Under the pieces are notes generated by a model, which made no database searches, had not been told where the DNA came from, and saw nothing but the letters and a program-made list of their open reading frames with translations. 20,289 nt of DNA from a virus: positions 1-20,289 of IMG/VR virus record IMGVR_UViG_3300030102_001246; one strand, given 5' to 3'. Both the position numbers and the translations under genes were made by a program. Positions 1,311 through 13,856 of the stretch are shown here, piece by piece. Position 1 is the first letter of the stretch; each line of letters opens with the position of its first letter.

Positions 1311-1529
1311 ATGTCTGAAACATTCAAAAAAGCTCTTCAAGTCTCCGGCATGGTAGATACCCGCCGTAATAATCTGGCCTATGCGGTGAGCCAGCTACAC
1401 AATTCCATTTCGCAGATGGACGGCCACCACCTGACCATCCTTGTGCGGGATTATCCGGAAATTTTAGAGGCCGCCCGCACCTATGCAAAGCACGAGGCCG
1501 GGCTTAATCGCTTCGAACAGGCCGGATAA
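1311..1529 (+). CDS. Hypothetical 72-aa helical protein
   Basis: ATG 1311 is preceded by AAGG (1297-1300) at 10 nt. The product (MSETFKKALQVSG...) is predicted mostly helical, with no membrane segment and no Cys. It starts MSETFKKALQVSGMVDTRRN and ends HEAGLNRFEQAG. The DNA at its start shares the 13-mer gaaatgaccaaat with the start of the preceding gene (719-731 and 1300-1312), but there the ATG of that word is in a different frame and closes after 17 codons. It is the last gene before the strong terminator at 1592-1619, so it ends the upstream transcription unit. I do not recognise its family. Confidence 0.65.
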   Translation: MSETFKKALQVSGMVDTRRNNLAYAVSQLHNSISQMDGHHLTILVRDYPEILEAARTYAKHEAGLNRFEQAG

Positions 1530-1591
1530 CCCGCGAACCCGTTACCCTTCCCGGCGGGGTCAACAGCCGGGTGTTTCCTCCCTCTAACTTG

Positions 1592-1619
1592 CCCCCGGCC
1601 TAGTGCTGGGGGTTTTTTT
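1592..1619 (+). terminator. Rho-independent terminator of upstream operon
   Basis: CCCCCGGC (1592-1599) pairs with GCTGGGGG (1605-1612) through 8 pairs including one G-U, with a 5-nt loop, and is followed by seven T (1613-1619). A weaker hairpin (CCCGGC 1550-1555 / GCCGGG 1566-1571) lies just upstream. Confidence 0.9.
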
Positions 1620-1681
1620 GTGGGCCTGTCATGTTTATTCGGGATCACCGGTTGTAAACATTGGGGAAACCGGGCCGGATG

Positions 1682-1831: not shown

Positions 1832-1983
1832 ACAATCGCAGCATCACCGATGCCATATAAAAATTTCGCTAGGCGCACCCGTACGCAAGGGCCACCCCAC
1901 CCCCCTGACATTTGCTATGCAATCCCGACATATTTTTTATAGTTTTAGGTTATCGATATGGTATTCCTGCGAACCCGTTGGGT

Positions 1984-2011
1984 AAAAAAAAGGCTCCCAA
2001 CGAGGGGAGCC
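1984..2011 (-). terminator. Leftward Rho-independent terminator
   Basis: GGCTCCC (1992-1998) and GGGAGCC (2005-2011) form a perfect 7-bp stem with a 6-nt loop. The run of eight A at 1984-1991 becomes eight U downstream on the minus strand; on the plus strand no T-tract follows. An alternative hairpin, CCCGTTGGG (1974-1982) with CCCAACGAGGG (1996-2006), would exclude it. Confidence 0.75.
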
Positions 2012-2064
2012 GCGAACCTATTAGGGGAACCGGGGGGGTACATGGGTGTATCCCCGGCGGGTTC
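1984..2064 (-). ncRNA. Candidate minus-strand small RNA, about 81 nt
   Basis: A leftward promoter (2099-2071) and a leftward terminator (2011-1984) enclose a transcript that would start near 2064 and end in eight U. The RNA folds into two hairpins. The 5' hairpin closes with GAACC (2064-2060) / GGTTC (2031-2027), then GGGG (2055-2052) / CCCC (2038-2035), a bulged A, and TACA / TGTA capped by loop CCCA. The 3' hairpin is the terminator. No start codon with a ribosome site and no useful frame is present, so it is probably non-coding. Its job is unknown; it lies back to back with the promoter of the structural operon. The terminator loop side contains a CUCCCCUC tract that could pair with purine-rich ribosome-binding sites. 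Confidence 0.5.
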
Positions 2065-2070
2065 TACGCC

Positions 2071-2099
2071 AGTGTACAGTCAAATTTCGCATTTGTCAA
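2071..2099 (-). promoter_or_regulatory. Leftward sigma70-type promoter
   Basis: Read on the minus strand: perfect -35 TTGACA (2099-2094), a 17-bp spacer, and -10 TACACT (2076-2071; 4 of 6). It is divergent from the rightward promoter at 2130, and the two -35 boxes lie in a perfect 8-bp inverted repeat (TGTCAACC 2094-2101 / GGTTGACA 2128-2135). Confidence 0.55.
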
Positions 2100-2129
2100 C
2101 CCTTTTCGTAATTTTTGATCACTTTTAGG

Positions 2130-2158
2130 TTGACAGGGCGGGTAACTAGCCCTAAACT
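2130..2158 (+). promoter_or_regulatory. Rightward promoter of the head operon
   Basis: Perfect TTGACA (2130-2135), 17-bp spacer, TAAACT (2153-2158; 4 of 6), giving a start near 2165 and a leader of about 18 nt before the ATG at 2183. TTTAGG (2124-2129) / CCTAAA (2151-2156) and GGGC (2136-2139) / GCCC (2149-2152) are inverted repeats around it, so a repressor could bind here. Confidence 0.7.
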
Positions 2159-2182: not shown

Positions 2183-2383
2183 ATGTTCACAGCGATAGTA
2201 TTCGCCTGTTGGCTTCACAGCCCCAACGATTGCACACAATTTATCGATAAACAGGGTCCGTACAAGACAGAGGGTGAGTGTGCAACCCGTGTGGTTCGCA
2301 TGATCAAGGAAATACGCAACATAACACCCGGAAAAATCATTGTCGGTGCCGACTGCACCATAGTCGCACAGGAATCTACATAA
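2183..2383 (+). CDS. Small exported-type Cys protein, first gene of head operon
   Basis: 66 aa from ATG 2183, with AAGGAG at 2169-2174 (8 nt), the best ribosome site in the region; an upstream TTG at 2165 is not needed. Seen: a hydrophobic N-terminus (MFTAIVFACWL), then N-D-C, a helix starting E-C-A-T-R-V-V, and a C-terminal strand with G-A-D-C-T-I-V. Small proteins with this layout (hydrophobic start, helix with Cys, final strand with Cys) are common in marine phage genomes and have no known function; a disulfide between the later Cys residues is possible. The gene at 16854 has the same layout. It leads the operon just before the terminase genes. Confidence 0.75.
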   Translation: MFTAIVFACWLHSPNDCTQFIDKQGPYKTEGECATRVVRMIKEIRNITPGKIIVGADCTIVAQEST

Positions 2384-2386
2384 GCA

Positions 2387-2791
2387 ATGAACCTGCTACC
2401 CCAACAAAACAACCGCAAACCCGCCTTAACGGACAAACAGGAAGTCTTTTTAGATGCTTTGTTCGACAATGGCGGCAACGTACGGGCTGCAGCAGAGGTT
2501 GCTGGCTATGCAGAAGGCTCTATTAAGTGGCTCAAGGACCGCTTGGCCGATGAAATCATCGAACGGACCAAAACCGTGTTGGCGGGACAGTCCCTCAAGG
2601 CCGCGAACAAGCTGGTCAGCCTTGTGGACGCTCCGGATATCGAACGTGGGGACGATTTGCGTATGAAAGCAGCCGAATCTGTCCTCAACCGTGTGGGCTT
2701 GGGCCGACAAGAGACGATGCACCACAATGTCACGGCGGTTCACGGCGTTGTTCTGCTGCCACCAAAAAAAGAAGTAGTAATTGATGGGTAA
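2387..2791 (+). CDS. terS: Terminase small subunit
   Basis: 134 aa. Role: DNA recognition in genome packaging, loading the large subunit on concatemeric DNA. Seen: an N-terminal helix-turn-helix typical of small terminases (TDKQEVFLDALFDNGG, then NVRAAAEVAGYAEGS and IKWLKDRLADEI), a central helical segment (VLAGQSLKAANKLVSLVD and the RMKAAESVLNRVGLGR motif), and a short tail. The RMKAAESVLNRVG stretch is common in small terminases of this type. The start follows 3 nt after the previous stop, with a weak AGGA upstream. The last 8 nt overlap the large-subunit start, so the two are translationally coupled. Assignment rests on motifs and on position directly before a clear TerL. Confidence 0.88.
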   Translation: MNLLPQQNNRKPALTDKQEVFLDALFDNGGNVRAAAEVAGYAEGSIKWLKDRLADEIIERTKTVLAGQSLKAANKLVSLVDAPDIERGDDLRMKAAESVLNRVGLGRQETMHHNVTAVHGVVLLPPKKEVVIDG

Positions 2792-4517
2792 ACCCCGCAA
2801 ACGCGTCCTAGTCCCCCCTGACCCGGCGACCTTGGACCAGCCACGGAAACGTGGGCGACCAAAAAAAGACCCGAACCAGCCCAAAGCTGAATATGCAATC
2901 AGCGACAGGGAGCGGGCACGACGTTCCGTCCAGATGCGTCTTCGCAACGCAAAGAAGTCGGCAGCTTCCCAGCAACGAAAAGCCGAATACAGGAAAAAGA
3001 AAGTCAAAAAACTAACCGAATCTGCAGATAAAATAGAGAAGGCGTTACAGGGTGAAAAAACTAGAGTCATCGATCAAGGCGATCTTACAAATCTTCCGGA
3101 CTCAGTGGGCGATCTTGTTGATGGTAGCCCAGTTATCTTCAAGCCAAATCCGGGACCACAAGAAGAATTTCTCAGCGCGTCTGAGCAAGATGTACTCTAC
3201 GGTGGTGCAGCCGGGGGCGGTAAATCTTTCGCTCTCTTGGCCGATCCTCTGCGCTACTGTCACAACTCTAATCATCGTGGGCTTCTTCTTAGGCGTACTC
3301 TCGACGAGCTAACAGAACTCATCGACAAGTCGAAGCAGTTATACCCGAAAGCATTTCCGGGAGCTACCTTCCGTGAGTCCAAGTCCACATGGGTTTTTCC
3401 GTCAGGGGCAACCATGTGGTTCACCTATCTCGACAGAGATAAAGACGTAACCCGTTTCCAAGGACAGGCGTTCAACTGGATCGGCATAGATGAAATTACT
3501 CAGTACCCTTCGTCCTATGTCTGGGATTACCTGCGTTCTCGCCTTCGTTCTACTGATCCTGAACTCCAGCAACAGTTGTGCATGCGCTGCACAGCCAACC
3601 CCGGAGGAGTGGGTGGTTGGTGGGTCAAGAAGATGTACATTGACCACCGCGAACCAAACAAGCCTTTTGGTGCCTACGACTTAGAAACAGGAAAAACATT
3701 TGTGTGGCCTGACGGTCACGAAAAAGCAGGTCAGCCGCTGTTCTATCGCAAATTTGTCCCTGCACGGTTGACTGATAATCCCTACCTGATGGCAGACGGC
3801 CAATACGAGGCCATGCTCAGGTCGCTCCCGGATGTCGAGCGTAGACGACTCCTAGAAGGGGATTGGGACGTGGCGGAGGGAGCGGCCTTCCCCGAGTTTT
3901 CGAGGTCTCGACATGTGGTCGAACATTTTGAACTTCCAACCAACTGGCCGCGCATACGAGCGGCGGACTACGGCTACGCAAGTCCATCGTGCGTTTTATG
4001 GGGGGCTATTGACTGGGATAATAATATCTGGGTTTATCGTGAGTTGTACGCAAAGCACTTGACAGCCGAGCAACTAGCTGATAAAATACTAGAAGCAGAA
4101 GAGTTAGACCCACTTCCACACTACAATGTTCTAGACTCTTCTTGCTGGAACAAGACAGGCTTCGGCCCGTCCATTGCAGAGACAATGATGCGGGCTGGTG
4201 TTAGGTGGACTCCCTCGGACCGCAACCGTCTACAAGGTAAAATGGAAGTTCACAGGCGGCTTGCTGACGACCCCTACACCGACGAACCTCGTCTTAGAAT
4301 ATTCTCCACGTGCAAGCACACCATAGCGCAGCTATCGGGCATACCTCTCTCCAAAACCAACAGTGAAGATGTAGACACGAAGGCAGAGGATCATGCGTAC
4401 GATGCGTTGCGCTACATGGTGATGACGCGCACGTCGGGGTATCAGGCTATACACAAAACACTTCAAGGCATCAAGGATCAGGCGTTTAGGCCGATGGATG
4501 CTACGTTTGGATACTGA
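2784..4517 (+). CDS. terL: Terminase large subunit (packaging ATPase-nuclease)
   Basis: 577 aa from ATG 2784. It powers DNA translocation into the prohead and cuts the concatemer. Seen in order: a very basic N-terminal extension (residues 1-95) with an AT-hook-like RKRGRPKKDP (21-30) and a Lys-rich coil; the ATPase domain with Walker A GGAAGGGKS (140-148), Walker B IGIDE (233-237) and the coupling motif CTANPGG (269-275); then an RNase H-like nuclease with acidic residues D395 (ADYGYASP), D451 (NVLDSS) and D540 (EDHAYDALRY). All catalytic positions are present. It overlaps terS by 8 nt and the next gene by 1 nt (TGATG). The N-terminal extension is longer than usual and may help hold DNA. Confidence 0.97.
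   Translation: MGKPRKRVLVPPDPATLDQPRKRGRPKKDPNQPKAEYAISDRERARRSVQMRLRNAKKSAASQQRKAEYRKKKVKKLTESADKIEKALQGEKTRVIDQGDLTNLPDSVGDLVDGSPVIFKPNPGPQEEFLSASEQDVLYGGAAGGGKSFALLADPLRYCHNSNHRGLLLRRTLDELTELIDKSKQLYPKAFPGATFRESKSTWVFPSGATMWFTYLDRDKDVTRFQGQAFNWIGIDEITQYPSSYVWDYLRSRLRSTDPELQQQLCMRCTANPGGVGGWWVKKMYIDHREPNKPFGAYDLETGKTFVWPDGHEKAGQPLFYRKFVPARLTDNPYLMADGQYEAMLRSLPDVERRRLLEGDWDVAEGAAFPEFSRSRHVVEHFELPTNWPRIRAADYGYASPSCVLWGAIDWDNNIWVYRELYAKHLTAEQLADKILEAEELDPLPHYNVLDSSCWNKTGFGPSIAETMMRAGVRWTPSDRNRLQGKMEVHRRLADDPYTDEPRLRIFSTCKHTIAQLSGIPLSKTNSEDVDTKAEDHAYDALRYMVMTRTSGYQAIHKTLQGIKDQAFRPMDATFGY
4059..4087 (+). promoter_or_regulatory. Possible internal promoter inside terL
   Basis: TTGACA (4059-4064), 17-bp spacer, TAAAAT (4082-4087; 5 of 6), with an extended -10 TG one base before. 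It is the closest match to consensus in the window, but it lies in coding sequence, so it may be chance. It would feed the recombinase-like and portal genes. Confidence 0.4.
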
Positions 4518-6349
4518 TGTCGGATATAACTGCAAAGATCAAAGATCAGACTCTTACCATTCGTGAGGCTATCGAAGGTGCGGGTAAGCCTTTGACCACC
4601 TCTAAGGGTGCGCCAAATAAGTTTGCTAAGAATATCGAAGCAGCAGGTTTGTCTCTGGATGATCCGTGGTCAAGTATAAAAGATGAATCTTTTTTACGTA
4701 AGCTGAACGAAATTGGAACAGAAGGAAACTTCGTTTCACTTCTTACTGTAGAGAATGAACTTCGTCGTCTCTCTAGCGTCGGAGATATTCCGTTTCCTTA
4801 TTCTGATGTGTTTAGCCCCAAAGGGAAAGCGCGTGGACTAAAAGACGCTGAAGGTAATTTTTTAGAAAAGGCGTCACAAGCACGTCTAACCAAGAAGTTT
4901 AAAGGTGTTCCCGAGGCCCAGAAGTCTCTCACTGCCCTAACAGAGGGCATTTCTGTTATCAAAGACCCGCGAACTCGTGCTGCCGTTGCCTTCAATGCTC
5001 TTGTGCCTCTTCGTCCCGGTGAAGTCGCAGGGATTAAAGTGGATGACATCGACTTTGAAACTGGTTCTTTCAAGGAATCATATCGTCGTGTAAACAAGAT
5101 TCGTAATGAACTTGATCTTCCGGAAGTTGCACTAGAGATTATACGCGATGCTGCTGACAAAGCGAAAGCAGAGGGACGTGAATATATATTCCTCGACAAA
5201 GATGTCAAAGACCCTAAAAAAGCGACGGGCAACTTTGTAAATAAAATGACCACGGGCATGAAAATGCCGGGTGGTGTTATTGAAAGGTTCAAGCCTTTTG
5301 AAAAGGCTATGGGTCGTGCGGTTGCTGGCGCATCAGACATTCGTAAAATCATCCCCTCTATTATCGCAATGGAGTTAGGATACACCACAGAAGCTAGTGC
5401 GATTATGGGTCACGCATCCTTCGATGAAACCATCGACGGCATGAAAGGCATAACTCGTAAGCACTACGTTTCTCAAATTATTACAGACGAAGGCACTACA
5501 GCAAAGCAAGCTCTTCGTGCCTTACAAAACATGTACGGCGAAGTTCTTGGCTTGTCAACCTTAAATGAGATTCCGGCATCTATGGGCGTAGATGCAGCAG
5601 GACTCACCCAAGAAGGCGCACCACGTCTGGCAGTAATTCCTAAAGGCTCTGAGATTGTTGGGACACAAGTTCAGGGCACACTAAACGACGCGGACCTTGA
5701 CTTGATTGAGGATGTTCGTGAAGCACGGAGTCAACAGCTAAAATTAGAGGCAACGACTGCAGAAAAACAGCGTCTTGAGATGGAAGCCCAGATGGGTGAA
5801 CTTGACGAAGAGGCTGAAAGGGTCCGAGCGCAAAGGCGACTGCGTCGTCAAGAGATTTACAAAGAAGAGAAAGCTGCAGTCACACCCGAGTCCCCCGAAC
5901 CTAAGTCTATGACTGACTTCAATCCTGATTTACAGGATCAACTCAACAAAGGCGGTTTCGACTTTGATGCGTTTCTCAAGGGGACGACTAAAGCAGTCGG
6001 GGGTGCATTTGCTGGGTTGGCGGCTTACGAACTTTTCCGTGATCCTTTAGGCACGGGAGCGGCAATGGCGAAAGAGATTGCTATAGAGGGTGCTGGTTTA
6101 GCAGCACGTTTACCTGCCGGACCGGCTGCTGCCCTCCCGATGATCCTTGAACCTACGGCCACAGCCGGACCAGAGCTTTCAGAAATCGAACCCGGTTTAG
6201 GATACACAGAAGACGAACTTCGTCAGATACGAGGCACCGAACCGCTGCCCGATGCTGACGCCGGGTTCGTAAACAGAAACGATGCTGCACGGAACCGTGA
6301 GGAAGCCACCGATGCAGCCGCTCAACCTATGGGCTTCCTTTCACCATAA
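4517..6349 (+). CDS. Tyrosine-recombinase-like protein with extra C-terminal region
   Basis: 610 aa, start codon overlapping the terL stop (TGATG). Seen: an N-terminal helical region (1-130); a recombinase-like catalytic domain (about 130-320) with LVPLRPGEVAGIKVDDIDFE (Arg166), SDIRK (Arg276), MGHAS (His299) and KHYV (Tyr317); a coiled coil rich in Glu/Arg (about 390-455); and an Ala/Gly-rich hydrophobic stretch (about 485-550). Known: tyrosine recombinases use Arg, His/Lys-x-x-Arg, His and Tyr. Here the first residue of the H-x-x-R box is Ser273, and Tyr is 18 residues after His299 rather than the usual ~9. So it is probably related to integrases, with altered or lost activity. Its site between terminase and portal, and the large extra C-terminus, are odd for an integrase and suggest a head-related or packaging-linked role. 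Confidence 0.7.
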   Translation: MSDITAKIKDQTLTIREAIEGAGKPLTTSKGAPNKFAKNIEAAGLSLDDPWSSIKDESFLRKLNEIGTEGNFVSLLTVENELRRLSSVGDIPFPYSDVFSPKGKARGLKDAEGNFLEKASQARLTKKFKGVPEAQKSLTALTEGISVIKDPRTRAAVAFNALVPLRPGEVAGIKVDDIDFETGSFKESYRRVNKIRNELDLPEVALEIIRDAADKAKAEGREYIFLDKDVKDPKKATGNFVNKMTTGMKMPGGVIERFKPFEKAMGRAVAGASDIRKIIPSIIAMELGYTTEASAIMGHASFDETIDGMKGITRKHYVSQIITDEGTTAKQALRALQNMYGEVLGLSTLNEIPASMGVDAAGLTQEGAPRLAVIPKGSEIVGTQVQGTLNDADLDLIEDVREARSQQLKLEATTAEKQRLEMEAQMGELDEEAERVRAQRRLRRQEIYKEEKAAVTPESPEPKSMTDFNPDLQDQLNKGGFDFDAFLKGTTKAVGGAFAGLAAYELFRDPLGTGAAMAKEIAIEGAGLAARLPAGPAAALPMILEPTATAGPELSEIEPGLGYTEDELRQIRGTEPLPDADAGFVNRNDAARNREEATDAAAQPMGFLSP

Positions 6350-8741: not shown

Positions 8742-11397
8742 TCGCATAAATCTTATTGAAGATGACGATACTGAAGACACATCTTTTCGGTTCACGCCCA
8801 AGCGTGTGGTCAGTGCGGGTGAATACGGTAGTTCGTTTATCAACTTTTACAACACCACGCTCGGACTGCCATCTCTCGGACAAGAAACTGGCATCGAAGT
8901 AAGAGAGGATATCACAGAGTTGGCTGAACCGGGTCGTTCGCCAAAAAGGGATGAGCCGAGTGATGATCCGAGTGAAACTGGCGTAGACCCGTTTGATGTT
9001 ATAAACACACAGCCTATAGTATTTTACAACGATAACACCTCATCAACCAATGTAAATTTCGACAGTTATTCTGATTACCTATCTTCTGCACAAGATGGGA
9101 AGTTCAAGGATCGCGTGGGTCTCGTACAAAATGTTTTAGAACCCACTGTCACTGGCAACTTTAGAGAAATTGATCTCGGTGCAGGACTCAGTTCAGAGGT
9201 GAAGGCCACTGCTCAAGATATAGGTGCTGAAATCAAAGAAGCACCCTCTCGGGCCGAGCGTTTGATCACGGGTAATTTGGACGAAAGAGACAGCAAGTCT
9301 CTTGCCGCTGGTCTTGCGTCAGCTATGGCGGGACCGGTTGGTGGCGTAGCAGGCACCTTTATAGGGGGAACAGAAGTAAGGAACGCTTTTGGTAACAACA
9401 GTTTCCGTCCAGCGGGGCCTTTAGGTTTTGTAGCAGACCTCGTTCACGCGAAACAATACGATGCTAGGGCAAAAAACAGGGCTGTCCGTAGTGCGTACGC
9501 TCAAGGAGACATGGCGGGCACGGATTTTGGCCGGATGAATTTTAGCAAGGTCGATGTCGGTTTTGAAATGACTATCGGCAATTTAGGTATAGTTCGCGCT
9601 GCCGGTGAGTATCATTACAGCGGCAACATGCAGGGGCTGTCCCATCAAACTGTACGAGCTTTGGAGGCAATTAGCAAAGGATACGACCCCACCCGAGGTC
9701 GCTACAATTTTCGTGATCCGAGTAAAAGTCTGACGGTAGAAGAGGCGGGTGGTCTACAGGTATCCGGCAACCCGATGGATGGTTTCTTTAGGGCGAACGG
9801 CACTGTGTACAATCCCAAATTCATAGGCCATATCGGGGGTGCTTCAGGGGCGTTCCCAAGCAGAGCAATGATTCTAGGCGCAGCCAAAACTCATGGTGTA
9901 TCAGAGGATCAGTTTCGGAGTGCCCTTTCCCAAGCTAGAAGTGGAAATATCACGCTGGGGGATGCGGTTAGAAGAATCAAGTCTCAGGAAGACGCGATAC
10001 GCAAAGCAGAGGCAGATCGTAAAGAAAAAGCAGAGGCAGATCGCATAAGAGATGCTAATCTTAAAGCCCAACAACGTGCAGCAGCTCGGGCGGCTGAAAA
10101 AACTGCGGCTCAAATTGCAGAAGAAGCGAGGGAGCGGGCTAGAAAGCAGCAGCAGCAGCAGGACGATGGGGGCACACCATCTTACTCTCCACCTACTGAG
10201 TATTCTATCAGTACAGGCTTCGAGGATCGCACAGACTTTGGTGGATCAAGCGGACCATTTGCAGAGGGTGGTCGTGTTGGCCTTGCCATGGGTGGCGCAC
10301 CCGGCATGGCATCTGGTTTCGTAGATCGCCCACCCGAGCAAGTGCCTGAAGATCAGACTGTTGCGGATAACCGGGCAACCCAACTCCCCGAAGGCGCGTT
10401 CGTAATCAACGCCGCAGCCGTTGAGTTCGCGGGAAGCAATGATATCAAGGATATGTTGCTCAAGGCTCACAAAGAATCTTTACGACGCGGATTATCGGTT
10501 GACAAACAAGGAAATGGTGCTAAACTAATAGACGTGGCGATTTCAAGCGGTGAAGTTGTTGTCGCCCCACACCTCGCCAAAATTATCGGCTATGATCGCC
10601 TAAATAAGATCAACAATCGCGGCAAAGCCGAGACTCGCGAACGTATCGAAGAAAACGGGCAGCCCGAAGGTATGCAGGCTCGGTCTGGTGGTTTCATAAA
10701 TAGGTACAATGGTGGTGACGTGTCCACACGTTACGCCGGACCGTTGTCAGCAGTTGAGTTGATGAAGTCCGGCCTCAACGTCTCATCCCCTGTTTCTCAA
10801 GGATTTATCGAACAAGAACCGTTTGATACCGGCCCGGTTCCGACTGGGTTAGATGATACGGCACACGGATATCGCATAGGTGATGTGATGGCTGCTATTC
10901 AGGCTGTTGAAACCAAAGGCTACGAAAACAAGAACGGCGGCTACATATTCACCAAGTCTGATAAAAAAGGAAAAAGGTCTTCGGCCTTCGGTCCCTATCA
11001 AATAACCGGAGAAACAGTAGCGGACTTGCTGAAAAGAAACAGCAACGTAGCTAGACAAATTAAATTTGATCCGGGATTTGGCGATTACATCAATGCCTTT
11101 ATTGCACAGGGCGTTGATGCTGTAAACATACGCAAGACAGGTAAAAAGTACGTCGGTCCAGAAGATAACAGAACCCCTGTAAAAATAAGCAACGCTGTAA
11201 AGAAACTATACGGTCCCCTCGGTGTGGGTGAAATACCCAGAGAACTTCATGATAAGTATTACCCCATGCTTGCCGAGTATGTCGTGAAACAAAAAGCTTC
11301 AGATGCCGGTTCTTTTGACGAGTGGATCAAGAGCTACGGAAACAATACCGAGGCTTATCTGAAAAAAGTAAAAACAGAACTAGATAAATTATCATAA
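8734..11397 (+). CDS. Large virion-type protein with C-terminal transglycosylase-like domain
   Basis: 887 aa. Seen in order: an acidic N-terminus (MADRINLIEDDD); a hydrophobic Gly/Ala segment (about 190-212, LAAGLASAMAGPVGGVAGTF); a charged coiled coil (about 412-476) containing an 8-residue repeat (KAEADR) and five Gln; a linker with FAEGGRVGLAMGG, a phrase common in marine phage virion proteins; a domain starting LPEGAFVINAAAVEF (about 550-645); and a C-terminal region (about 715-885) with the lytic-transglycosylase-like pattern AVETKGYE (candidate catalytic Glu726) followed by SSAFGPYQIT (751-757, like the G-x-x-Q-I motif). Inference: an internal virion or ejection protein whose end opens peptidoglycan during DNA entry. 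The domain call is by motif only. It follows portal and overlaps the 74-aa gene by 8 nt. Confidence 0.72.
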   Translation: MADRINLIEDDDTEDTSFRFTPKRVVSAGEYGSSFINFYNTTLGLPSLGQETGIEVREDITELAEPGRSPKRDEPSDDPSETGVDPFDVINTQPIVFYNDNTSSTNVNFDSYSDYLSSAQDGKFKDRVGLVQNVLEPTVTGNFREIDLGAGLSSEVKATAQDIGAEIKEAPSRAERLITGNLDERDSKSLAAGLASAMAGPVGGVAGTFIGGTEVRNAFGNNSFRPAGPLGFVADLVHAKQYDARAKNRAVRSAYAQGDMAGTDFGRMNFSKVDVGFEMTIGNLGIVRAAGEYHYSGNMQGLSHQTVRALEAISKGYDPTRGRYNFRDPSKSLTVEEAGGLQVSGNPMDGFFRANGTVYNPKFIGHIGGASGAFPSRAMILGAAKTHGVSEDQFRSALSQARSGNITLGDAVRRIKSQEDAIRKAEADRKEKAEADRIRDANLKAQQRAAARAAEKTAAQIAEEARERARKQQQQQDDGGTPSYSPPTEYSISTGFEDRTDFGGSSGPFAEGGRVGLAMGGAPGMASGFVDRPPEQVPEDQTVADNRATQLPEGAFVINAAAVEFAGSNDIKDMLLKAHKESLRRGLSVDKQGNGAKLIDVAISSGEVVVAPHLAKIIGYDRLNKINNRGKAETRERIEENGQPEGMQARSGGFINRYNGGDVSTRYAGPLSAVELMKSGLNVSSPVSQGFIEQEPFDTGPVPTGLDDTAHGYRIGDVMAAIQAVETKGYENKNGGYIFTKSDKKGKRSSAFGPYQITGETVADLLKRNSNVARQIKFDPGFGDYINAFIAQGVDAVNIRKTGKKYVGPEDNRTPVKISNAVKKLYGPLGVGEIPRELHDKYYPMLAEYVVKQKASDAGSFDEWIKSYGNNTEAYLKKVKTELDKLS
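10003..10043 (+). repeat. Coding tandem repeat in coiled coil
   Basis: The 17-mer AAAGCAGAGGCAGATCG occurs at 10003-10019 and 10027-10043 (period 24 nt, 8 codons) and encodes KAEADR twice. A recent internal duplication of a coil heptad-like unit is likely; a CAG x5 run (10147-10161) lies nearby. Confidence 0.8.
10499..10526 (+). promoter_or_regulatory. Weak internal promoter-like site
   Basis: TTGACA (10499-10504), 16-bp spacer, TAAACT (10521-10526). The word CTAAACTAAT (10520-10529) is identical to that at the head-operon promoter (2152-2161). It is inside coding sequence and about 960 bp before the scaffold gene, so it could boost scaffold and coat expression, or be chance. Confidence 0.3.
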
Positions 11398-12409: not shown

Positions 12410-13348
12410 ATGGCTTTCAATAGCGCGTCAGGTTACAACAACCTGCCATCCGGTAACTTTACACCGGAAATTTTTAGCCAAAAAGTTCTCAAATTCTTCC
12501 GTCGCGCTTCGGTTGCAGAAGACATCACGAACACCGACTACGCTGGCGAAATTGAGAATTTTGGCGATACTGTCCGCATCATCAAGGAACCAACAATTAC
12601 GGTCTCCTCGTATGCTCGTGGATCAGTAGTAAACCCGCAAGACCTTGCTGACGATCAGACAACTATGGTTGTTGATCAGGCAAACGCTTTTGCATTTAAG
12701 ATTGACGACATCGAAGAGCGTCAGTCTCACGTTAACTTCGAGGCTCTGGCCACCTCTTCAGGTGCGTACTCCTTGAAGCGTAAGTACGATGCCAACGTCC
12801 TGCAAGCAATGGCAGACGGCGCAGGCAACACCGGTACCTCTGTTGGTACGGCTGCTAGCCCGATCGATATCACTGGTAGTGGTAACGAGGACGCTGCTGT
12901 CAACCTGATAATGACAATGGCTCGTATTCTCGACGATCAGACTGTTCCAGAAGAGAACCGCTGGTTTGTAGCACCTCCGATCTTCTACGAGAACGCGTTC
13001 AAGGCTGGTGCCAAGTTCGCAGAAGTTCAGGTAACTGGTGACGGCACTTCGCCGCTCCGCAACGGTCTTGTCATGGCTGGCAATATTGCCGGTTTCAACT
13101 GTTACAAGTCCACGGCCCTGAACAACTCGGGAACTGACGTTGTGACCATCAACTCGCAAGACACTACGAACGATTTCGTTGTTCTTGCTGGACATATGTC
13201 CTCAACTGCAACTGCTTCGCACATTGCGAAGACTGAGGTTGTACGTTCGACTGAAACCTTTAGTGACATCGTTCGTGGTCTCCACGTGTTTGGCCGTAAG
13301 GTCATTCGCCCGGAAGCTATCGTTCAGGGTGTCATTAAGACTGACTAA
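12410..13348 (+). CDS. Major capsid protein
   Basis: 312 aa, start ATG 12410 with the best ribosome site of the window (GGAAGGA, about 12396-12402), as expected for the most abundant protein. Seen: N-terminal MAFNSASGYNNLPSGNFTPEIFSQKVLKFF with an E-loop-like region, AFKIDDIEERQSHVNFE, then YSLKRKYDANVLQAMA, NRWFVAPPIFYENAF and the C-terminal end VIRPEAIVQGV. This profile matches HK97-fold coats of the P22-coat-like group in marine podovirus-like phages; the exact family was not searched. It ends with tandem stops (TAA TAG, 13346-13351). The next gene has its own strong ribosome site. It follows the scaffold and lies in the expected order. Confidence 0.92.
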   Translation: MAFNSASGYNNLPSGNFTPEIFSQKVLKFFRRASVAEDITNTDYAGEIENFGDTVRIIKEPTITVSSYARGSVVNPQDLADDQTTMVVDQANAFAFKIDDIEERQSHVNFEALATSSGAYSLKRKYDANVLQAMADGAGNTGTSVGTAASPIDITGSGNEDAAVNLIMTMARILDDQTVPEENRWFVAPPIFYENAFKAGAKFAEVQVTGDGTSPLRNGLVMAGNIAGFNCYKSTALNNSGTDVVTINSQDTTNDFVVLAGHMSSTATASHIAKTEVVRSTETFSDIVRGLHVFGRKVIRPEAIVQGVIKTD

Positions 13349-13784: not shown

Positions 13785-13796
13785 CCAACTTGTCGG

Positions 13797-13813
13797 GGGG
13801 GCCACGTGCCCCC
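13797..13813 (+). terminator. Terminator-like hairpin ending head operon
   Basis: GGGGG (13797-13801) pairs with CCCCC (13809-13813) around a 7-nt loop. The downstream T-tract is poor (ttgacatttcttt), so termination may be partial. The -35 of the next promoter begins on the next base. Confidence 0.55.
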
Positions 13814-13842
13814 TTGACATTTCTTTAATTACATGATAAAAG
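13814..13842 (+). promoter_or_regulatory. Promoter of lysis and accessory operon
   Basis: TTGACA (13814-13819), 17-bp spacer, TAAAAG (13837-13842; 4 of 6) with an extended -10 TG (13834-13835). It fits the expected place between the hairpin and the gene at 13870. Confidence 0.65.
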
Positions 13843-13856
13843 CAGGAACCTCCTGC
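13842..13856. promoter_or_regulatory. Dyad over the -10 and start site, operator-like
   Basis: GCAGGA (13842-13847) and TCCTGC (13851-13856) are perfect arms around ACC. It covers the expected start (about 13848), so it would be only half present in the RNA; this favours a DNA-binding site over an RNA hairpin. A repressor here could block the promoter. Confidence 0.4.

What the first reader, a model, noticed from the sequence alone, without database searches (positions are those of the whole stretch)
1984..2158. Divergent promoter pair driving a candidate structured minus-strand RNA and the head operon
Two promoters with perfect TTGACA boxes and 17-bp spacers point away from each other (leftward 2099-2071, rightward 2130-2158). 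Their -35 boxes form a perfect 8-bp inverted repeat (2094-2101 / 2128-2135). The leftward transcript would end only ~81 nt later at a strong leftward terminator with eight U, and folds into two hairpins. There is no minus-strand gene, so this terminator needs another explanation: a small RNA is the simplest. The layout resembles a regulatory switch in which one factor could control both directions, and the RNA might act in trans.
Basis: partly seen in the sequence, partly recalled or inferred. Interest (0 to 1): 0.72.

Follow-up and report, generated by a model that had tools for sequence, protein, structure and literature searches.

The report
Phage two-small-RNA switch before terminase
In a group of uncultured marine phages, the stretch just before the DNA-packaging genes carries a conserved pair of back-to-back promoters, one of which appears to make a short non-coding RNA, and next to it a second RNA element that looks like a bacterial ribosome-site-blocking small RNA.

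Summary
The window is a fragment of an uncultured HMO-2011-like phage. The leftward promoter is present in 110 of 114 related loci (17-bp spacer in 74 of 82 distinct ones); the rightward, terminase-side promoter in 40 of 41 tested. In 61 of 82 a strong leftward intrinsic terminator follows within 140 nt (60-locus subset: 51 within 190 nt, against 4-8 in shuffles), and its stem shows compensatory changes. So a short (here 81 nt) non-coding minus-strand RNA is well supported; action in trans is not shown. The shared -35 inverted repeat is trivial; a variable dyad centred on the leftward start site is a better operator candidate.

It follows a stop codon directly, recurs at the same place across the clade, and its core also occurs in unrelated phages. 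Expression and function are inferred; no RNA data were available.

The parts
2071..2099 (-). Leftward promoter PL, TTGACA-17-TACACT
   Evidence: present in 110 of 114 related loci, 82 distinct, spacer 17 in 74 and 16 in 8
2056..2070 (-). Dyad directly after the -10, centred near the PL start site (arms GGCG/CGCC in the window); sequence varies between relatives, symmetry is kept; candidate operator
   Evidence: 39 distinct segments: own arms pair over 3.87 bases on average, swapped partners 3.02+-0.12, maximum 3.41 in 500 shuffles
1984..2064 (-). Predicted short non-coding RNA (81 nt) from PL
   Evidence: fold z -3.6; lengths 62-146 nt in 61 distinct relatives, no GGAGG in any of 61, longest ORF 23 aa or less in the 7 checked
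2044..2055 (-). 5' mini-hairpin GGGG-AUACA-CCC of the minus-strand RNA
   Evidence: GGG / A+T-rich loop / CCC in the first 34 nt of 76 of 81 distinct loci against 1.3 in shuffles
1984..2011 (-). Leftward intrinsic terminator (stem 2011-1992, U8 1991-1984)
   Evidence: within 140 nt in 61 of 82 distinct loci; compensatory changes in 3 of 7 pairs, 0 of 500 shuffles reach the covariation score
2130..2158 (+). Rightward promoter PR, TTGACA-17-TAAACT, in front of the terminase/head genes
   Evidence: 40 of 41 distinct relatives
2183..2383 (+). Small ORF (66 aa from ATG 2183), first gene after PR
   Evidence: no PHROG or Pfam match (scanned as 2165-2383)
2387..2791 (+). Probable terminase small subunit
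   Evidence: PHROG 51, E 3.9e-4, weak
2781..4517 (+). Terminase large subunit
   Evidence: PHROG 979, E 3.5e-61; Terminase_6N
1537..1628 (+). MmgR/alphaR8-family RNA element (sRNA1); hairpin 1550-1571, core UUUCCUCCCU 1574-1583, terminator stem 1591-1613
   Evidence: RF00519 48.2 bits, gathering 41; structure covariation in 7 of 15 pairs over 10 sequences; model R1 hits at the same place in relatives
1311..1529 (+). 72-aa ORF whose stop codon (1527-1529) directly precedes sRNA1; probable host mRNA of this 3' UTR element
   Evidence: no promoter signal just upstream of sRNA1 (6.99 against 7.36 in control windows, 37 loci)
1874..1985 (.). Most conserved non-coding block ('island A') between the two terminators: C-rich stretch, TTGCTATGCAA, T-tract, GGTTATCGATA; role unknown (packaging or replication site suspected)
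   Evidence: 81-93% identity stretches in many relatives; pattern scan gives 61 stretches
1969..1984 (+). GCGAACC repeat, copy outside the minus-strand RNA (others at 1533 and 2012)
   Evidence: copies of one locus resemble each other more than those of other loci, 0.457 against 0.36

Best explanation
The stretch 1530-2160 is a conserved non-coding control region between the upstream gene block and the terminase/head operon of an uncultured HMO-2011-like phage clade. PR starts the terminase and head genes to the right. PL, back to back with it, starts a short non-coding RNA (81 nt here) that ends at its own intrinsic terminator before reaching island A. Shown by comparison: promoters and terminator are kept together, and the terminator stem is kept by compensatory change. 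Inferred: the RNA is made and acts as a regulatory RNA, most likely as a small base-pairing RNA with a C-rich body and a U-tail, with PL controlled through the dyad on its start site. To its left, the 3' UTR of the upstream operon ends in a MmgR/alphaR8-type element whose single-stranded UUUCCUCCCU would pair with Shine-Dalgarno sequences of host or phage mRNAs, as SisA does in Caulobacter. It would have to be cut out of the mRNA (no promoter of its own was found), as SorX and CcsR are in Rhodobacter. Together: two small RNAs facing each other at the boundary of the head operon.
For: PL in 110 of 114 loci and PR in 40 of 41. Terminator in 61 of 82 distinct loci and 51 of 60 against 4-8 of 60 shuffled. 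Covariation of the 7-bp terminator class. Dyad arms co-vary. 5' mini-hairpin 76 of 81. PL is the only leftward TTGAC[AG]-16/18-TANNNT site in G003 and one of two in G001. sRNA1: RF00519 above cut-off; hairpins covary; CCTCC kept in 46 of 60 model matches, 11.5 expected in shuffles; exact published core 5'-UUUCCUCCCU-3' (PMC12559287, passage).
Against: No transcript data of any kind. 14-15 of 76 distinct loci with enough sequence keep PL but lack a near terminator, so PL must be useful there without the short RNA; 8 of these 14 loci, or their near copies, carry strong sRNA1. Between clades the RNA body is poorly conserved, except its 5' end and terminator, which fits a DNA-level role as well. 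No conserved partner was found. Only 1 of 12 phage copies of the strong sRNA1 class passes Rfam's cut-off; scans of 27 clade loci gave none. The weaker R1 matches were scored by a model that contains the motif, so motif counts on them are partly circular.
Confidence: 0.6

Rival explanations
1. The conserved feature is mainly a DNA site (packaging start or replication origin: island A plus GCGAACC repeats). PL transcription or its termination matters only in cis, for example to open or to shield the site; the RNA itself has no function.
For: Island A is the most conserved block. GCGAACC copies lie on both sides of the terminator, only one of them inside the RNA, and are homogenised within loci. 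[quoted passage not shown] A DnaA-box-like GGTTATC[CG]ATA lies beside a T-tract (the resemblance is recalled). PL is kept even where the terminator is missing.
Against: Terminator sequences differ widely yet keep their stems, which a pure DNA site does not explain. Contig ends do not cluster at island A: in 21 long records with the block, 2 lie within 400 nt of an end. GC skew of the complete relatives follows gene strand and shows no extreme at island A.
Confidence: 0.25
2. PL is a by-product of a strong bidirectional promoter region and the terminator only insulates the upstream + strand genes from antisense transcription.
For: All genes to the left are on the + strand, so unterminated PL transcription would be antisense to them. 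Divergent promoters are common in bacteria (recalled).
Against: PL keeps a near-consensus -35, 16-17-bp spacer and -10 in 82 distinct loci at variable distances from PR, which a by-product would not need; it also has its own dyad and 5' hairpin.
Confidence: 0.12
3. sRNA1 and the PL RNA are only transcription terminators, one for each direction, and the resemblance of sRNA1 to alphaR8 is convergent.
For: Both end in strong intrinsic terminators. Most phage copies of sRNA1 stay below Rfam's cut-off, and weak RF00519 matches also occur in 13-14 of 14 control genomes at these lax E-values.
Against: The core plus ACTTGCCCC is conserved where the 5' hairpin is replaced or lost. Above cut-off in the window, L168 and L157 against 1 of 14 control genomes.
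Confidence: 0.2

Closest known systems
MmgR / alphaR8 small RNAs (RF00519; SisA-D of Caulobacter)
   Same: sRNA1: above the Rfam cut-off; identical 10-mer UUUCCUCCCU; hairpin before it; intrinsic terminator after it
   Different: Encoded in phage; directly after a stop codon without a detectable promoter; most clade copies below the cut-off; Hfq binding and targets unknown
3' UTR-derived anti-SD-like sRNAs of Rhodobacter (SorX, CcsR1-4)
   Same: sRNA1 lies in a 3' UTR and matches the SorX model at 33.9 bits; RNase E maturation from 3' UTRs is described for SorX and CcsR (PMC8625941, abstract and passages)
   Different: 33.9 bits is below SorX's cut-off of 46.6; phage context; processing untested
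Lambda OOP RNA
   Same: Works like it in layout: a short (77 nt) terminated RNA from its own promoter, in a phage control region (PMC12197685, passages)
   Different: OOP is antisense to cII; the PL RNA is antisense to no ORF here and lies before terminase, not before replication genes
Lambda 6S RNA from the late promoter pR' (recalled, from no call)
   Same: Short terminated RNA at the start of the late genes
   Different: 6S RNA runs in the same direction as the late genes; the PL RNA runs away from them
HMO-2011-type phages (CRP, HTVC, HMO-2011)
   Same: Nearest named relatives by TerL, up to 58% identity
   Different: No DNA match to sRNA1 or to the PL/PR region in 50,697 phage records, only chance-level hits

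Membership tests
MmgR/alphaR8 (RF00519), for sRNA1 | Covariance-model score at or above Rfam's gathering score | tested here: met
   48.2 bits against 41 for the window; not met in 27 clade loci scanned whole
MmgR/alphaR8 (RF00519), for sRNA1 | Internal single-stranded 5'-UUUCCUCCCU-3' (PMC12559287) | tested here: met
   1574-1583, unpaired in the fold; exact 10-mer in 14 of 60, TTCCTCCC in 32 of 60 R1 matches
MmgR/alphaR8 (RF00519), for sRNA1 | Weak hairpin before the core and Rho-independent terminator after it | tested here: met
   covariation in both hairpins
MmgR/alphaR8 (RF00519), for sRNA1 | Independent transcript with own promoter | tested here: not met
   no promoter enrichment: best score 6.99 against 7.36 in control windows, 37 loci. 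That family members have their own promoters is taken from the SisA-D passages, so this is a feature of the described members rather than of the Rfam definition
MmgR/alphaR8 (RF00519), for sRNA1 | Hfq binding, base-pairing with SD regions, alphaproteobacterial host | not testable with these tools
   host unknown; named relatives infect alphaproteobacteria
Independently transcribed phage small RNA, for the PL RNA | Own promoter and own terminator, conserved together | tested here: met
Independently transcribed phage small RNA, for the PL RNA | No coding capacity | tested here: met
   no GGAGG in 61 of 61, ORFs of 23 aa or less in the 7 checked
Independently transcribed phage small RNA, for the PL RNA | Detected transcript and a target | not testable with these tools
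   no RNA data; pairing with sRNA1 own against swapped -62.4 against -60.9+-7.3 kcal/mol, no specificity
OOP-type antisense RNA, for the PL RNA | Complementary to a gene on the other strand | tested here: not met
   1984-2064 overlaps only the mechanical + strand ORF 1912-2118 of 68 aa, which lies in the gapped, variable part of the alignment

The most novel reading that the evidence does not exclude
Marine phages of several kinds have taken up alphaR8-type anti-Shine-Dalgarno RNAs to redirect host translation. In this clade such an RNA is paired with a second, divergently transcribed phage-specific RNA, making a two-RNA switch at the entry to the terminase/head genes.
Probability: 0.3. Interest if true: 0.82.

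Novelty: new variant of a known kind. Interest (0 to 1): 0.62.

Why it matters
HMO-2011-type phages are described as dominant and broadly distributed in the ocean (abstract of PMC9038755), and their gene control is hardly known. If right, the locus gives two concrete, probe-ready RNAs, one with a predicted mode of action (blocking Shine-Dalgarno sequences through the same 10-mer that Caulobacter SisA uses). It would show phages carrying a regulator class so far described from alphaproteobacterial chromosomes. The literature searches made here listed no report of a phage-encoded MmgR/alphaR8 RNA or of an RNA in HMO-2011-type phages; most subscription journals are outside that library.

Tried and rejected
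Chance: rejected by conservation, although the window's own promoter and terminator counts are at chance level.

-35 inverted repeat as operator: it follows from two identical -35 boxes; the bases beside them differ between relatives.

PL RNA as sponge of sRNA1: the window has 9-base complementarities (direct repeats D2 and D5), but over 10 loci own pairs are no better than swapped ones, and GGAGG, needed to bind the UUUCCUCCCU core as CrfA does, is in 0 of 61 PL RNAs.

Physical genome end at island A: the loci suggested it, but the loci are cut by storage. On the whole records island A is near an end in 2 of 21, besides G001, a circle with a 91-base end overlap opened there.

Own promoter for sRNA1: not found. 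Prophage or host by TerL in bacterial genomes: only a 36% relative in Jiangella. The 5' stem GCCGGGG with a distal partner: RNAalifold gave no consensus stem on 68 sequences; only the mini-hairpin is general. GCGAACC as a repeat special to this locus: it occurs 48 times in G001, 9.3 expected at order 1, so it is not confined to the locus.

Phage targets of sRNA1: only gene 13362 has a 7-base SD match (AGGGAGG) and 6365 and 1311 six-base ones among 24 starts; no control was run, so no claim is made.

Rows left out before counts: 22 of 136 loci without a profile match and, of 110 with PL, 28 with identical sequence. In one search the 82 were reduced to 39 distinct segments. In one search, L051 is counted as lacking a near terminator because a stronger distant hairpin was picked, although one search shows its near one; L004 is counted in the 61 although it has only 149 nt of sequence, so the 76 (150 nt or more available) is not the denominator of the 61. 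For some searches I gave 62 of the 105 sources, chosen by me to avoid repeats; 4 of the 60 matches lie on the PL RNA, not on sRNA1.

Full report
WHAT THE WINDOW IS. The window is a 20,289-base virus record. It reads rightward: DUF932 protein (34-618), two unknown ORFs, a non-coding stretch 1530-2180, a small ORF, probable terminase small subunit, terminase large subunit, a protein with a weak tyrosine-integrase match, SU10-type portal, and major head protein at 12410-13348. The nearest named relatives by TerL are HMO-2011-type phages of Roseobacter, SAR116 and Pelagibacter, up to 58% identity. In IMG/VR 596 candidate stretches encode a relative; the best 80 (79-96% identity) were kept.

THE OBSERVATION. 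Every stated element is there. A generic consensus scan of the window finds no more promoters or terminators than shuffles do, so the case rests on relatives.

CONSERVATION. A profile from 1870-2160 finds the region in 58 of the 80 loci besides the window's own. A second set came from an exact-pattern scan for the conserved block to the left, 61 stretches. Of 136 loci in all, 114 match the profile; 110 of these have TTGAC-N with a TANNNT-type -10 at the place of PL. Three of the four without it (L123, L086, L132) end just after the conserved block; the fourth is L032. There are 82 distinct sequences, 74 with a 17-base and 8 with a 16-base spacer. The rightward promoter was found in 40 of 41 distinct regions. 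The distance between the two promoters varies while both are kept.

THE TERMINATOR. Of the 82 distinct loci, 65 have a hairpin of -9 kcal/mol or better with a U-tract within 330 nt of the predicted start, 61 within 140 nt. In 60 loci with 200 nt available, 51 have one within 190 nt; dinucleotide-shuffled copies give 8, 4 and 7. These are related sequences, so 51 is not 51 independent events; but more than 20 different hairpin sequences occur. In the class with a 7-bp stem (8 distinct sequences), 3 of 7 pairs change on both sides and stay paired, 0 of 500 shuffles reach the covariation score, and slid controls lose it; without the alignment gap of L081, four stem positions show double changes (by my reading of its pair counts). 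This is the best evidence that a leftward RNA end is under selection. Against it, 15 loci with at least 200 nt lack a near terminator by that script (L051 wrongly) and still keep PL.

THE RNA AND ITS 5' END. The predicted RNAs are 62-146 nt long, rich in C (0.33) and without GGAGG in 61 of 61. Directly after the -10 lies a short dyad centred near the start site. Its sequence differs between relatives (for example AGGACC..GTCCT, AGGTCC..GACCT, GGGC..GCCC), but the arms follow each other: own arms pair over 3.87 bases on average, swapped ones over 3.02+-0.12. Since half of it lies before the predicted start, I read it as a DNA operator that changes with its regulator, not as an RNA hairpin; this is inference. 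After it comes GGG, an A+T-rich loop, CCC, in 76 of 81. RNAalifold finds no larger consensus stem there.

THE SECOND ELEMENT. Rfam at curated thresholds has one match in the window, not to the finding but 350 bases to its left on the + strand: RF00519 (suhB/MmgR), 1537-1628, 48.2 bits against 41. It begins directly after the stop codon of ORF 1311-1529. It has a hairpin, an unpaired GUUUCCUCCCU and an intrinsic terminator. The described hallmarks of the alphaR8 family are a terminator and an internal single-stranded 5'-UUUCCUCCCU-3' downstream of a weak hairpin (PMC12559287, passages seen), exactly this layout. Ten phage copies align, with 7 of 15 pairs showing double changes. A model from them (R1) matches at the same place in most loci, strongly (over 70 bits) in 14 of the 105 sources, two of which (L057, L061) are copies of L055, and weakly (about 18-43 bits) in many more. 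In 60 matches of a reduced set, CCTCC is kept in 46 and TTCCTCCC in 32, although the 5' hairpin is often replaced or lost; shuffles give 11.5 CCTCC. Weak R1 matches also fall on the PL RNA itself (for example L022, L023, L063, L092, L128), which shows a shared build (hairpin, C-rich link, terminator) rather than descent.

BEYOND THE CLADE. The core TTCCTCCCTNRACTTGCCCC occurs in 39 viral stretches. Of the 35 new ones, 25 carry the same terminase-side region and 10 have neither it nor a related TerL. Of these ten, L157 and L159 carry Phage_portal_3, L157 also a Mu-F-like head gene right after the core, and L182 and L150 a different terminase. L168 and L157 pass the RF00519 cut-off; no phage protein was recognised for L168 in the one (PHROGs) or two (Pfam) ORFs scanned. 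Named phages have no match beyond chance.

MECHANISM. Best reading: PR starts the terminase/head genes; PL starts a short, self-terminated regulatory RNA; upstream, the 3' UTR of the preceding operon delivers an anti-SD RNA of alphaR8 type. For SisA the 10-mer pairs upstream of start codons and represses targets (PMC12559287, passages). 3' UTR-derived sRNAs cut by RNase E are known in Rhodobacter (PMC8625941), and no promoter was found just upstream of sRNA1. The main rival is a DNA site: island A with GCGAACC repeats, kept even where the terminator is lost, at a distance from terL like that of the predicted pac site of PhiM6. The two readings are not exclusive.

NOVELTY. Phage small RNAs with own promoter and terminator are known (OOP, 77 nt; PMC12197685, passages). 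A phage-borne alphaR8-like RNA and an RNA in HMO-2011-type phages did not appear in my searches (listings only, except the passages named). I rate it a new variant of a known kind.

Noticed in passing
window 4517-6349: 610-aa protein between terminase and portal with a weak tyrosine-integrase match (PHROG 1, E 1e-5; Pfam below cut-off); in the annotated HMO-2011 and CRP-13 regions the portal follows terminase directly. Relatives are found in many clade loci with very variable identity.
   Followed up: partly
L157, L159, L182, L150 (cores at 9422+, 5810-, 6811-, 6479+): The alphaR8-like core plus terminator in other phage types: between portal and a head gene (L157), after the portal (L159), just upstream of a different terminase (L182).
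   Followed up: partly
window 1874-1985 and relatives: Inside island A the stretch CCCCA before CCCCCC is replaced in some relatives by its reverse complement TGGGG (for example L002, L034, L038), like a tiny inversion.
   Followed up: no
G001 (record of L002), whole genome: GCGAACC occurs 48 times against 9.3 expected at order 1, on both strands; in G003 11 against 8.1.
   Followed up: no
L150 4045-4122 (-): Match above cut-off to the Rfam family CyVA-1 (45.9 bits, cut-off 41.4) beside a terminase gene of another phage type.
   Followed up: no
window 13791-13856: A strong rightward terminator (13791-13819) faces a leftward terminator-like hairpin (13856-13842) after the head genes, again without a recognised minus-strand gene.
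   Followed up: no
G001 38.8-49.7 kb: The minus-strand gene block of the complete relative carries ribonucleotide reductase, Cas4-type exonuclease, PolA, DnaB and primase; the + strand carries terminase and portal, the DUF932-type gene and, next to the block, an amidase-like protein (the + strand names partly by homology with the window).
   Followed up: partly
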